A stretch of DNA of 64,000 nucleotides. It comes from Bacillota bacterium (lineage in GTDB: Bacteria > Bacillota > Clostridia > Peptostreptococcales > Anaerovoracaceae). The stretch covers positions 62,001 through 126,000 of the forward strand of contig JAFRHG010000004.1 in NCBI GenBank assembly GCA_017433375.1, written 5' to 3'. Shown here piece by piece: positions 667 through 61,916 of this stretch. The translations under genes were made by a program, and so were the position numbers. The notes beneath the pieces are model-generated. The model ran no database searches and was not told the origin of the DNA. It was given only the letters and a program-made list of their open reading frames with translations. Position 1 is the stretch's first letter, and each line of letters begins with the position of its first letter.

Positions 667-1147
667 GGCAAGCCTGGCGCTGTTTCTGGCGGCGATGATT
701 GCCTTTGCCGCCGCACTGACCGGCTGCGGAACCGATGACATCGACATCTCCGGCTACGGGGATCAGACGGTCACCATCACCGGCGTTACGGACAAGGACA
801 TCACCCTGACCATCGCGGACCTGAAGGCCATGGACTGTGTCACGGTCTCCGCCGAAAGCACCAGCGACAAGATCGGCGAGGTCCGGGTGACCGGCCCCAC
901 CCTGGACACGGTTCTGGGGCAGTTCGGCATGTCCTGTAAGGACATCGGCCAGGCCCGCGTCTGCGGCAGGGATGACTACGACGTGAAGCTGACGGCGGAC
1001 ACCCTCGCCAATGACCAGATCATTCTGGCCTTCGGAATCGACGGCCAGCCGCTGGGAGAGGAGGACGCGCCCCTGCGCCTCATCATTCCGGGCTCCGACT
1101 CCGCCTGGTGGGTCCGCATGGTTGAGCGCATCGAGCTGACCGACTGA
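650..1147 (+). CDS. Lipoprotein with a molybdopterin-oxidoreductase-like (sulfite-oxidase fold) domain
   Basis: A 165-residue lipoprotein. The N-terminus is a lipoprotein signal with lipobox LTGC, so it is probably anchored on the outer face of the membrane. The rest resembles a short version of the sulfite-oxidase/YedY fold (TGPTLDTVLGQFGM, then APLRLIIPG and WWVRMVERIEL). The cysteine that normally ligates molybdenum is not seen at the expected place; the segment reads VTVSAES. It may be a cofactor-free ligand-binding version of the fold. The start overlaps the end of the DUF2149 gene and there is no obvious ribosome-binding site, consistent with translational coupling as the third gene of the channel operon. 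Confidence 0.6.
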   Translation: MWWKSRASLALFLAAMIAFAAALTGCGTDDIDISGYGDQTVTITGVTDKDITLTIADLKAMDCVTVSAESTSDKIGEVRVTGPTLDTVLGQFGMSCKDIGQARVCGRDDYDVKLTADTLANDQIILAFGIDGQPLGEEDAPLRLIIPGSDSAWWVRMVERIELTD

Positions 1148-1194
1148 GCCCCCTGATGTGCGCTCAGATTCCGCCGGGCAAGGCAAAAAACGCA

Positions 1195-1223
1195 TTGCTA
1201 TTGTAGGGAAAATCCCGTATAAT
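1195..1223 (+). promoter_or_regulatory. Promoter of the ferredoxin-AOR operon
   Basis: TTGCTA at 1195-1200, a 17-base spacer and a perfect TATAAT at 1218-1223. Transcription should begin near 1230, right at the start of the riboswitch-like leader. Confidence 0.75.
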
Positions 1224-1232
1224 TAGGTAAAA

Positions 1233-1320
1233 GACTCCGACTCCCTCACGACACACGGGGTGTGCCGGTGGGAGCGCCAGGTATCGGGAGTGATCCCGGT
1301 GCCCGCCATTGTGCAAAGGA
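1233..1320 (+). ncRNA. Candidate Moco/Tuco (molybdenum or tungsten cofactor) riboswitch aptamer
   Basis: A structured leader of about 170 bases lies between a strong promoter and the ferredoxin-AOR operon. Visible helices: CTCCC..AC (1241-1249) with GTGGGAG (1268-1274), capped by CACAC/GTGTG (1252-1256 with 1260-1264); then GGTA (1280-1283) with TGCC (1300-1303) around CGGGA/TCCCG closed by a GTGA tetraloop (GNRA type). The 5' edge ACTCCGAC, a GNRA-capped hairpin after CCAGG, and a trailing GCAAAGG resemble the E. coli moaA Moco-riboswitch leader as remembered. The downstream genes are a tungsten-pterin enzyme and its helpers, the expected context. A covariance-model search (Rfam MOCO_RNA_motif) would decide. 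Confidence 0.62.
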
Positions 1321-59694: not shown

Positions 59695-59730
59695 AGACAA
59701 TCCATCGTACCAGAGAAGGAGGACACCGAT

Positions 59731-60594
59731 ATGAAAGGAATCGTACTGGCCGGAGGGAAGGGAACGAGACTGTATCCCATGACCAAGACAATCTCCAAGC
59801 AGCTGCTGCCCATCTACGACAAGCCGCTGATCTATTATCCCCTGTCCGTCCTTCTTCTGGCCGGGATCCGGGATATCCTGATCATTTCCACCCCGGTGGA
59901 CATCGGGGACTACGAGGACCTTCTGGGTGACGGAAGCCAGCTGGGGGTGAATTTCTCCTACAAGATTCAGGACAAGCCCCGGGGCCTGGCCGATGCTTTC
60001 ATCCTGGGCGAGGAATTCATCGGGGACGATGACGTCTGCCTGGTGCTGGGGGACAACGTCTTCTACGGACAGGACCTGACCAAGATCGTCACCGACGCCA
60101 GAAAGGATCTGGACGGGGCGAAAGTGTTCGGCTACCCGGTCAAGGATGCCACAGCTTTCGGCGTGGTTGAGTTTGATCAGGACAACAACGTCATCTCCCT
60201 GGAGGAAAAGCCGGCCAACCCCAAGTCCAACTACGCGGTTCCCGGCCTGTATTTCTACGACAACCAGGTGGTGGAGATCGCCAAGAACATCAAGCCTTCC
60301 GCCAGGGGCGAGCTGGAGATCACCTCCGTGAACAACGCCTATCTGGAGATGGGAAAGCTCAAGGTCGCTCTCATGAAGAGGGGCATGGCCTGGCTGGATA
60401 CGGGCACCCCGGAGGGCATGCTGAAGGCGGCTGAGTTCGTCGAAGCGGTCCAGTCCCGTCAGGGATTCTACATCGCCTGCCTGGAGGAGATCGCCTGGCG
60501 GCGGGGGTTCATCGATATGGACCAGCTGCGCCGGATCGGCGAGGAACTGAGCATGACCGAATACGGCAAGTACCTGCTGTCCCTCCGTGACTGA
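59731..60594 (+). CDS. rfbA: Glucose-1-phosphate thymidylyltransferase
   Basis: A 287-residue enzyme forming dTDP-glucose. MKGIVLAGGKGTRLYPMT, KQLLPIYDKPLIYYPL, VLGDNVFYGQDL and WLDTGTPEGML are family signatures. AGAAGGAGG precedes ATG 59731. dTDP-glucose dehydratase (rfbB) is not in the window. Confidence 0.96.
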   Translation: MKGIVLAGGKGTRLYPMTKTISKQLLPIYDKPLIYYPLSVLLLAGIRDILIISTPVDIGDYEDLLGDGSQLGVNFSYKIQDKPRGLADAFILGEEFIGDDDVCLVLGDNVFYGQDLTKIVTDARKDLDGAKVFGYPVKDATAFGVVEFDQDNNVISLEEKPANPKSNYAVPGLYFYDNQVVEIAKNIKPSARGELEITSVNNAYLEMGKLKVALMKRGMAWLDTGTPEGMLKAAEFVEAVQSRQGFYIACLEEIAWRRGFIDMDQLRRIGEELSMTEYGKYLLSLRD

Positions 60595-60614
60595 CCGTTT
60601 CCGGGTCCATCGTC

Positions 60615-61916
60615 ATGCTTGCTCTTATCCGCACAGCGCTGAACAAAACCAATAACATCAACCGAAGCACCTACCTGTGGAACGCGATCAACGCGGGACT
60701 GTCGGCGGCTCTCTGCCCGGTGATCCTCATGGTCATGAACCGGACCAACGGAGTCTATGACGCGGGGGTGTTTTCCATTGCCTTTGCGGTGGCGGCCCTG
60801 ATGCTCTTTGTCGGCCAGTACGGCCTGCGCCGGTACCAGTCATCGGACATCCACGAGAAATATTCCTTCCCGGAATACCACGGCATGCGGTTCCTGACCT
60901 GCGGGGCCATGCTCATCGCCAGTGCGGCCTACTGCTTCTACGGCGTCTTCATGCGGGACTATACCCTGGACAAGTTTCTGGTGATCCTGCTGATCTGCCT
61001 GCTGAAAGAGGTGCAGGCTTACGCCGATGTGATCCACGGCCATATGCAGCAGAAGGGGAGGCTGGACGTGGCGGCCAAGGCATCGGCGGTCCGCTTCCTG
61101 GCGGAACTGGTGTCCTGCTGCGTCGCCCTGATCATCACCCATAATCTGCTGATCGCTTCGGCGGTCTGCCTTCTGACCTCCGTCGCCGTGCTGCTGCTGA
61201 CCACGGTCAATGCGGCCCGGGATTACTGCGGAAGCCTTCGCCCGTCCCTGAGCCGGTGGGCCTGCCGGCAGCTGCTGATCGACGGATTCCCGCTCTTTGC
61301 CAGCCTGTTCCTGAACATGTACATCAGCAATGCGCCCAAGTACGCCATCGACCAGTACCTGAACGATGAGGTGCAGGCCTACTTCAACTATATCTTCATG
61401 CCGGCCTTCGCCATTCAGCTGATCGCCTATTTCATCTTCAACCCGATCCTGACCACATACGCCAGGCTCTGGCTCTCCGAAAAACAGGAAGACCTGAAAA
61501 AACTCAGGTCCCTCATGCGCCGGCAGTGCGTGGTGCTGCTGGGGCTGACCGCACTCGCCGTTCTGGTGGCCCTCACCATCGGCATCCCGGTGCTGTCCTT
61601 CCTGTTCGGCGTGGACCTGAAGGGATACCGGAACGATCTGTGCCTGCTGATGGTGGGCGGCGGACTGATGGCCTACGGCGTGTTCTTCAACTACGTCATC
61701 ACCATCATCCGGGAGCAGAAGTACCTGCTGATCAGCTACGGCCTCACGTTCCTGGCGGCCAAGGCCCTGGCCGGGTTCTTCGTCGTCCACTACGGCATCA
61801 CCGGTGCAGTCATCCTGTACACGGTGCTCATGGGCGTTCTGGCCGTCATGCTGGCCATTGTCACGGTGTGGAAGGTGCGCGCCCACCGGGCTGAAATTGA
61901 AAAAGGCGCGGAATAG
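60615..61916 (+). CDS. Polysaccharide flippase (Wzx/MATE-like)
   Basis: A 433-residue membrane protein with about 12 hydrophobic segments. N-terminus INRSTYLWNAINAGLSAALCPVILMVMNRTNG is typical of oligosaccharide flippases, and there is a polar stretch SEKQEDLKKLRSLMRRQ in the middle. It should carry lipid-linked sugars across the membrane. Last gene of the surface-sugar run, ending in a hairpin. Confidence 0.87.
   Translation: MLALIRTALNKTNNINRSTYLWNAINAGLSAALCPVILMVMNRTNGVYDAGVFSIAFAVAALMLFVGQYGLRRYQSSDIHEKYSFPEYHGMRFLTCGAMLIASAAYCFYGVFMRDYTLDKFLVILLICLLKEVQAYADVIHGHMQQKGRLDVAAKASAVRFLAELVSCCVALIITHNLLIASAVCLLTSVAVLLLTTVNAARDYCGSLRPSLSRWACRQLLIDGFPLFASLFLNMYISNAPKYAIDQYLNDEVQAYFNYIFMPAFAIQLIAYFIFNPILTTYARLWLSEKQEDLKKLRSLMRRQCVVLLGLTALAVLVALTIGIPVLSFLFGVDLKGYRNDLCLLMVGGGLMAYGVFFNYVITIIREQKYLLISYGLTFLAAKALAGFFVVHYGITGAVILYTVLMGVLAVMLAIVTVWKVRAHRAEIEKGAE

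What the first reader, a model, noticed from the sequence alone, without database searches (positions are those of the whole stretch)
699..60785. A DNA-uptake-signal-like word: AAAGGCAA / TTGCCTTT about once per 1.6 kb on both strands
I count 39 exact copies (20 in one orientation, 19 in the other); base composition predicts roughly one or two. About 28 extend to CAAAGGCAA and about 19 to GCAAAGGCAA. They fall in several codon contexts: (I/V/L)-A-F, K-A-(T/R), K-G-(N/K), L-P-L at 19305 and R-Q-R-Q at 39387. Copies also lie in intergenic DNA (1332, 1353, 36187, 38460). Codons inside them (ATT, GTT, CTT, GCA) are otherwise uncommon here. The near-equal strand balance argues against Chi- or KOPS-type polarity. 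One inverted pair forms a hairpin beside a terminator (1332-1360), as uptake sequences do in Neisseria. Density is similar to known DUS/USS. Such a signal has not, to my knowledge, been described for Clostridia.
Basis: partly seen in the sequence, partly recalled or inferred. Interest (0 to 1): 0.93.

Follow-up and report, generated by a model that had tools for sequence, protein, structure and literature searches.

The report
Self-DNA uptake word in Clostridia
An eight-letter DNA word occurs 1,132 times on both strands of this likely Clostridia genome, a sister clade carries a two-letter variant together with a different pilus operon, and the word likely tags the cell's own DNA for uptake, a kind of tag so far described in two Gram-negative families.

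Summary
AAAGGCAA occurs 39 times in the window (shuffle mean 1.28) and 568+564 times in the 1.95 Mb genome (reversed word 73+61). In a 338 kb sample of this genome it is in excess in all six codon frames (152 coding copies; synonymous shuffle mean 11.8, maximum 21; codon-pair model 17.7), 2.6 times denser between genes, and without leading-strand bias. The longer consensus is GCAAAGGCAA. Five species of the genus instead have CAAAGGCTG (415-1,143 copies) and almost no CAAAGGCAA excess; they form one clade nested among CAAAGGCAA species. On pooled counts words are kept within a dialect and lost across dialects. A pilus operon (PilC, four small membrane proteins, PilT-like ATPase) has types that go with the dialect and contradict the species tree. 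ComEC is present. Best reading: a DNA-uptake-sequence system, independent of those of Neisseriaceae and Pasteurellaceae, in a Mogibacterium-like genus. Uptake is untested, the dialect switch is one event, and six word-rich genomes lack a detected operon.

The parts
699..706 (-). AAAGGCAA copy (within GCAAAGGCAA 699-708)
1332..1339 (-). AAAGGCAA copy (GCAAAGGCAA 1332-1341), intergenic, inverted pair with 1353
1353..1360 (+). AAAGGCAA copy, intergenic, inverted pair with 1332
7671..7678 (-). AAAGGCAA copy (GCAAAGGCAA 7671-7680)
7925..7932 (-). AAAGGCAA copy (GCAAAGGCAA 7925-7934)
9077..9084 (-). AAAGGCAA copy
13097..13104 (+). AAAGGCAA copy, intergenic
18868..18875 (-). AAAGGCAA copy
18992..18999 (+). 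AAAGGCAA copy
19305..19312 (-). AAAGGCAA copy
19971..19978 (-). AAAGGCAA copy; kept in G024
21586..21593 (-). AAAGGCAA copy (GCAAAGGCAA 21586-21595); kept in G005 and G024
24538..24545 (-). AAAGGCAA copy (GCAAAGGCAA 24538-24547), at a gene edge
24725..24732 (-). AAAGGCAA copy
24907..24914 (+). AAAGGCAA copy (GCAAAGGCAA 24905-24914)
26836..26843 (-). AAAGGCAA copy
27032..27039 (+). AAAGGCAA copy (GCAAAGGCAA 27030-27039); kept in G005 and G024
28871..28878 (-). AAAGGCAA copy (GCAAAGGCAA 28871-28880)
29486..29493 (+). AAAGGCAA copy (GCAAAGGCAA 29484-29493), intergenic; kept in G034
30470..30477 (+). AAAGGCAA copy (GCAAAGGCAA 30468-30477); kept in G024
31883..31890 (-). AAAGGCAA copy, at a gene edge
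32434..32441 (+). AAAGGCAA copy (GCAAAGGCAA 32432-32441); also present in G044, a species of the other dialect
35275..35282 (+). AAAGGCAA copy (GCAAAGGCAA 35273-35282); kept in G034 and G024
36187..36194 (+). AAAGGCAA copy, near a gene start
37658..37665 (-). AAAGGCAA copy (GCAAAGGCAA 37658-37667); kept in G034 and G024
38152..38159 (+). AAAGGCAA copy; kept in G034
38460..38467 (-). AAAGGCAA copy (GCAAAGGCAA 38460-38469), intergenic
39387..39394 (+). AAAGGCAA copy (GCAAAGGCAA 39385-39394)
42775..42782 (+). AAAGGCAA copy
45438..45445 (+). AAAGGCAA copy
45659..45666 (+). AAAGGCAA copy
48869..48876 (+). AAAGGCAA copy
49316..49323 (-). AAAGGCAA copy (GCAAAGGCAA 49316-49325)
50946..50953 (-). AAAGGCAA copy
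52320..52327 (+). AAAGGCAA copy
54735..54742 (+). AAAGGCAA copy
55168..55175 (-). AAAGGCAA copy (GCAAAGGCAA 55168-55177)
58267..58274 (+). AAAGGCAA copy
60778..60785 (-). AAAGGCAA copy (GCAAAGGCAA 60778-60787)

Best explanation
The word (core AAAGGCAA, longer consensus GCAAAGGCAA) is likely a DNA uptake sequence: a species tag that would be bound by a pilin-like subunit of a competence pilus, so that the cell would preferentially import DNA of its own kind through ComEC. Shown: the genome-wide excess on both strands and in all codon frames; a second dialect, GCAAAGGCTG, in a sister clade; on pooled counts, retention of words within a dialect and loss across dialects; a pilus operon (PilC, four small membrane proteins, PilT-like ATPase) whose type goes with the dialect and against the species tree; an intact ComEC gene. 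Inferred: that this operon makes the DNA-binding pilus; that one of its small proteins reads the word; that the excess arose because word-bearing fragments were taken up and recombined more often, so words accumulated wherever they did no harm; and that the variant clade changed its word when its pilus operon was replaced by a divergent one at the same place.
Confidence: 0.78

Rival explanations
1. The word is a Chi-like recombination signal read by the AddAB/RecBCD-type enzyme of this genus, enriched because it protects and recombines broken ends.
For: Short, non-palindromic, genome-wide, in coding DNA in all frames; a change of the enzyme could also change the word.
Against: No leading-strand excess: 101 leading, 89 lagging (summed); higher density between genes; the dialect follows a pilus operon. 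Chi strand bias differs between species (recalled), so balance alone does not exclude it.
Confidence: 0.09
2. The word serves chromosome organisation or another DNA-binding housekeeping protein (nucleoid, segregation or modification motif).
For: Even spread (gap CV 0.90) and no conserved flanks.
Against: No polarity and no palindrome; patchy within one genus, at background in nearly complete members such as G021, G022 and G048; a housekeeping function would not be expected to vanish or to switch with a pilus operon.
Confidence: 0.07
3. The excess is a by-product of amino-acid and codon preferences or of base composition.
For: The 9-mer is mildly above its reversed control in many genomes of the phylum; lysine-glycine and isoleucine-alanine-phenylalanine contexts are common among the copies.
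Against: 152 coding copies against 11.8 in synonymous shuffles and 17.7 in a codon-pair model; excess in all six frames and between genes.
Confidence: 0.01
4. The word is a DNA uptake sequence, but its receptor belongs to another pilus, such as the type IV pilus operon on contig C3, and the operon on C7 tracks the dialect by chance or linkage.
For: Own genome and G034 share the C3-type pilus (PilB 91% identical), and G034 is word-rich with no C7-type operon found.
Against: A PilB over 50% identical to the C3 one was found in 3 of 49 genus genomes, own included, while 21 of 49 exceed 100 words/Mb; the C7 operon type agrees with the more frequent word in 13 of 14 genomes by raw count (G012 is 143 to 144) and in 12 of 14 by ratio to the control.
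Confidence: 0.15

Closest known systems
DNA uptake sequence (DUS) of Neisseriaceae with receptor ComP
   Same: Short non-palindromic word in many copies, dialects sharing a core between related species (PMC3630211, passages); in Neisseria the minor pilin ComP reads the word (PMC3868556, abstract); about one per kb (PMC5397411, passages).
   Different: Different word (GCAAAGGCAA against ATGCCGTCTGAA, the latter from PMC5031613 passages). Inverted pairs are rare here, whereas in Neisseria they often form terminators (PMC1852404, passages). A likely monoderm host (inferred). Here the whole pilus operon type, not one known minor pilin, goes with the dialect; in Neisseriaceae dialects follow the core tree and largely the ComP tree (PMC3630211, passages).
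Uptake signal sequence (USS) of Pasteurellaceae with predicted receptor ComN
   Same: Genome-wide short word with dialects (PMC5031613, passages); a minor pilin predicted as receptor (PMC12616744, passages).
   Different: Different word (AAGTGCGGT, PMC5031613 passages); no marked AT-rich extension here; unrelated host.
Competence (ComG) pilus of Gram-positive bacteria
   Same: ComEC plus an operon of one ATPase, one PilC-type protein and several small membrane proteins; the ComG comparison is recalled.
   Different: Uptake outside Neisseria and Haemophilus is stated to be sequence-independent in almost every species (PMC12040237, passages). Here the ATPase gene comes last, and the four small proteins give no N-methylation match.
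Chi recombination sites
   Same: Short over-represented oriented word (recalled).
   Different: No strand bias here; link to a pilus operon.

Membership tests
DNA uptake sequence / uptake signal sequence (functional class) | Strong genome-wide over-representation of one short non-palindromic word | tested here: met
   1,132 against 134 reversed control; shuffles and codon models
DNA uptake sequence / uptake signal sequence (functional class) | Both orientations equally frequent, no replication polarity | tested here: met
   568/564 genome-wide; 101 leading, 89 lagging in 338 kb (summed)
DNA uptake sequence / uptake signal sequence (functional class) | Present in coding DNA in several frames and between genes | tested here: met
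   All six frames; intergenic 1.27/kb, coding 0.49/kb
DNA uptake sequence / uptake signal sequence (functional class) | Dialects sharing a core in related species | tested here: met
   CAAAGGCAA in the own genome and others, CAAAGGCTG in five species, near-exclusive there; G012 and G017 are mixed
DNA uptake sequence / uptake signal sequence (functional class) | Host carries DNA-uptake genes | tested here: met
   ComEC and pilus genes; DprA and ComEA not searched
DNA uptake sequence / uptake signal sequence (functional class) | Cells take up word-bearing DNA preferentially | not testable with these tools
   needs cells or purified proteins
Neisseriaceae DUS (as a sequence family) | Word derived from ATGCCGTCTGAA with core CTG | tested here: not met
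   consensus GCAAAGGCAA has no CTG on either strand; the variant GCAAAGGCTG happens to hold CTG but is otherwise different
Neisseriaceae DUS (as a sequence family) | Inverted word pairs in many terminators (common, not universal) | tested here: not met
   five neighbouring pairs under 60 bp in 338 kb, four inverted, one of them (1332/1353) intergenic
Neisseriaceae DUS (as a sequence family) | ComP receptor | not tested
   no ComP query was run
Pasteurellaceae USS (as a sequence family) | Core AAGTGCGGT or a variant, AT-rich extension | tested here: not met
   different word and no marked AT-rich flank
Chi site | Enrichment on the leading strand | tested here: not met
   101 leading, 89 lagging (summed); bias is not universal among Chi sites (recalled)
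Type IV pilin fold (first small protein of the operon) | Long N-terminal helix packed on a small sheet, matching solved pilins | tested here: inconclusive
Type IV pilin, class III prepilin | N-methylation motif processed by prepilin peptidase | tested here: inconclusive
   no N_methyl match at E up to 1 in the four small proteins; present in the C3 pilin

The most novel reading that the evidence does not exclude
A third, independent origin of sequence-tagged DNA uptake, the first in a Gram-positive lineage, in which specificity travels with an exchangeable pilus operon: one clade swapped the operon in place and then rewrote hundreds of tags across its genome from GCAAAGGCAA to GCAAAGGCTG.
Probability: 0.6. 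Interest if true: 0.92.

Novelty: new variant of a known kind. Interest (0 to 1): 0.87.

Why it matters
Sequence-tagged DNA uptake is described in two Gram-negative families, and uptake elsewhere is stated to be sequence-independent in almost every species (PMC5031613 and PMC12040237, passages). A clostridial system with dialects would show that such tags evolve repeatedly, that they need no outer membrane, and that they can act as mating types in gut communities. The link between operon type and dialect gives a short list of candidate receptors and makes the open question of how a tag and its reader change together directly testable. It also implies natural competence in a little-studied genus.
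Full report
What was checked. AAAGGCAA occurs 39 times in the window (19 on +, 20 on -), where dinucleotide shuffles give 1.28 on average and 5 at most; 28 copies extend to CAAAGGCAA and 19 to GCAAAGGCAA. It ranks first among the window's 8-mers. In the whole genome, a 1.95 Mb assembly of 38 contigs at 89% completeness, there are 568 forward and 564 reverse copies, against 73 and 61 of the word read backwards. 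Because contigs of a draft have arbitrary orientation, that balance alone is weak; within pieces oriented by GC skew, 101 words are on the leading and 89 on the lagging strand in 338 kb (my sum).

Not codons, not composition. In 275 called genes of the 338 kb sample there are 152 copies, 79 sense and 73 antisense, in all six frames; permuting synonymous codons within genes gives 11.8 on average and 21 at most in 200 shuffles. A codon-pair Markov model, itself inflated by the words, expects 17.7. The density between genes is 1.27 per kb against 0.49 in genes. Most single-base neighbours of GCAAAGGCAA are rare; exceptions are changes at the first two positions and G to A at the sixth (18 copies, 0.3 expected). 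Flanking bases outside about three positions on each side carry almost no information. 71% of 2 kb fragments and nearly all 10 kb fragments hold at least one word; the longest word-free gap is 10.8 kb.

Whose genome. The nearest named contigs by a PilB query are metagenome genomes labelled Bacillota, Eubacterium, Clostridiales and Mogibacterium, several from sheep gut; a few relatives of the first small pilus protein are named Mogibacterium sp. and Oscillospiraceae. The class Clostridia, and a Mogibacterium-like genus of Anaerovoracaceae (lineage of Mogibacterium), are therefore inferred.

Confined to part of one genus, with dialects. CAAAGGCAA was counted in 120 genomes, own included, and CAAAGGCTG in 73, own included. 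The own genome has 789 and 21. Five species of the same genus have the reverse: G001 23 and 415, G009 23 and 457, G010 22 and 783, G044 37 and 1,143, G045 29 and 479. Other species of the genus are rich in the first word (for example G024 435, G007 403, G047 375) or at background in both (for example G021, G022, G048). In all, 21 of 49 genus genomes exceed 100 copies per Mb of one of the two words. Among 397 other genomes of the phylum none comes near the own density of 404 per Mb; the highest I read by eye is about 66 per Mb. A mild excess over the reversed word is common in the phylum and means little. Within fetched DNA the variant's consensus is TGCAAAGGCTGG, and both dialects share the core GCAAAGGC. 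In several species of the G003/G007 group the core is enriched but the last two letters are loose.

Words are kept within and lost across dialects. On the alignment of window 18601-59000 to relatives, own words are kept in G024 at 10 of 18 sites, where 1.8 are expected from all 8-mers at 74% identity, and in G034 at 11 of 16 (4.5 expected). They are kept at 3 of 15 (2.9) in G005 and 0 of 7 (0.8) in G003, so not in every relative. Pooled over directed pairs, which are not independent: same dialect 62 of 149 (22.7) and 22 of 57 (12.4); across dialects 4 of 154 (19.3) and 0 of 83 (10.8). Five control words gave no comparable pattern, though one (GAAGGAAA) was kept at 11 of 33 against 5.5. One site shows the step itself: at 35221 G044 and G010 read GCAAAGGCTGG where the own genome and three relatives of its dialect read GCAAAGGCAGG.

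Operon type goes with dialect, against the species tree. PilC is found at 67-72% identity in nine species and at 40-41% in four. The four are all CAAAGGCTG species; the fifth, G045, has no detected operon. Of the nine, seven lean clearly to CAAAGGCAA; G012 (143 and 144) and G017 (170 and 125) are mixed, and lean to the other word against their reversed controls. Own PilC averages 69% identity to eight of the nine and 40% to three of the four; the flanking transglutaminase 58% and 54%. Yet two core proteins place the own genome, G005 and G024 with G044 and G010 (100/100), and 20.9 kb of aligned window DNA, word columns removed, place all five variant species in one clade (100/100). In the PilC+PilT tree the own genome groups with the first-dialect species (100/100). 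A core tree that sets G044 and G010 apart with the outgroup is rejected (p-AU 9e-5), and so is an operon tree that joins the own genome with the variant species (p-AU 4e-4); the operon tree carries a long-branch warning. The simplest history is one replacement of the operon, in place, on the branch on which the word changed. It is one event.

Association over the genus. Taking the larger of the two word densities, 12 of 14 genomes with these two operon types exceed 100 per Mb, against 3 of 14 with a distant operon and 6 of 21 with none found; Mann-Whitney P 0.001 against none and 0.0004 against distant, without correction for shared ancestry. The six exceptions (G005, G024, G034, G035, G045, G047) are 78-91% complete; whether the operon is truly absent is open. 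Three genomes with the distant operon (G015, G016, G037) are rich in CAAAGGCAA.

What it is. The pattern is that of a DNA uptake sequence. In Neisseriaceae dialects of the word exist, limit exchange between species (PMC3630211, passages), and the word is read by the minor pilin ComP (PMC3868556, abstract). A review places sequence-specific uptake in Neisseriaceae and Pasteurellaceae (PMC5031613, passages), and recent work calls the Neisseria case an outlier, uptake being sequence-independent in almost every other species aside from Haemophilus (PMC12040237, passages). The word here is unrelated to both known ones, so it is not a member of either sequence family; it works like them as far as sequence can show. 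No report of such a word in Clostridia appeared in the listings of my searches; a screen of Veillonella genomes found no sequence of 10 bases or more present 100 times or more (PMC5397411, passages).

What is not shown. No cell of this genus has been seen to take up DNA here; the receptor is unknown; DprA, ComEA and AddAB were not searched; Chi-like function is not excluded, only disfavoured.

Noticed in passing
window 1-64000: Some 6-mers are strongly avoided: CGATCG 8 against 58 expected, GCTCGG/CCGAGC 4 against 44, TCTCAG/CTGAGA 5 against 38; this looks like restriction-site avoidance.
   Followed up: no
L014:38-12610 (G000:C3:20038-32610): A 4,190-residue repetitive surface-protein-like frame beside a second set of minor-pilin-like genes; it holds most of the largest word-free gap in the sample, 10.8 kb.
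   Followed up: partly
G009 contigs C27, C80 and C194: This CAAAGGCTG species carries pieces of both operon types; the type A piece is on a 3 kb contig and may be a remnant or contamination.
   Followed up: no
L015 near 5512-5535, inside comEC: A perfect inverted word pair, GTTGCCTTTGCAAAGGCAAC, lies inside the ComEC gene.
   Followed up: no
G045 stretches L203-L205, L216: In 20 kb the extension CAAAGGCAG (9 copies) outnumbers CAAAGGCTG (2), although CAAAGGCTG has 479 copies genome-wide; a further variant may exist.
   Followed up: no
G033: CAAAGGCTG 149 against 3 reversed, with a distant pilus operon; possibly an independent use of the variant word.
   Followed up: no
G021 stretches L020, L021, L149: CGATACCG/CGGTATCG occurs 16 times in 52.7 kb against 1.3 expected; possibly another word in a species poor in both dialects.
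   Followed up: no
   Followed up: partly
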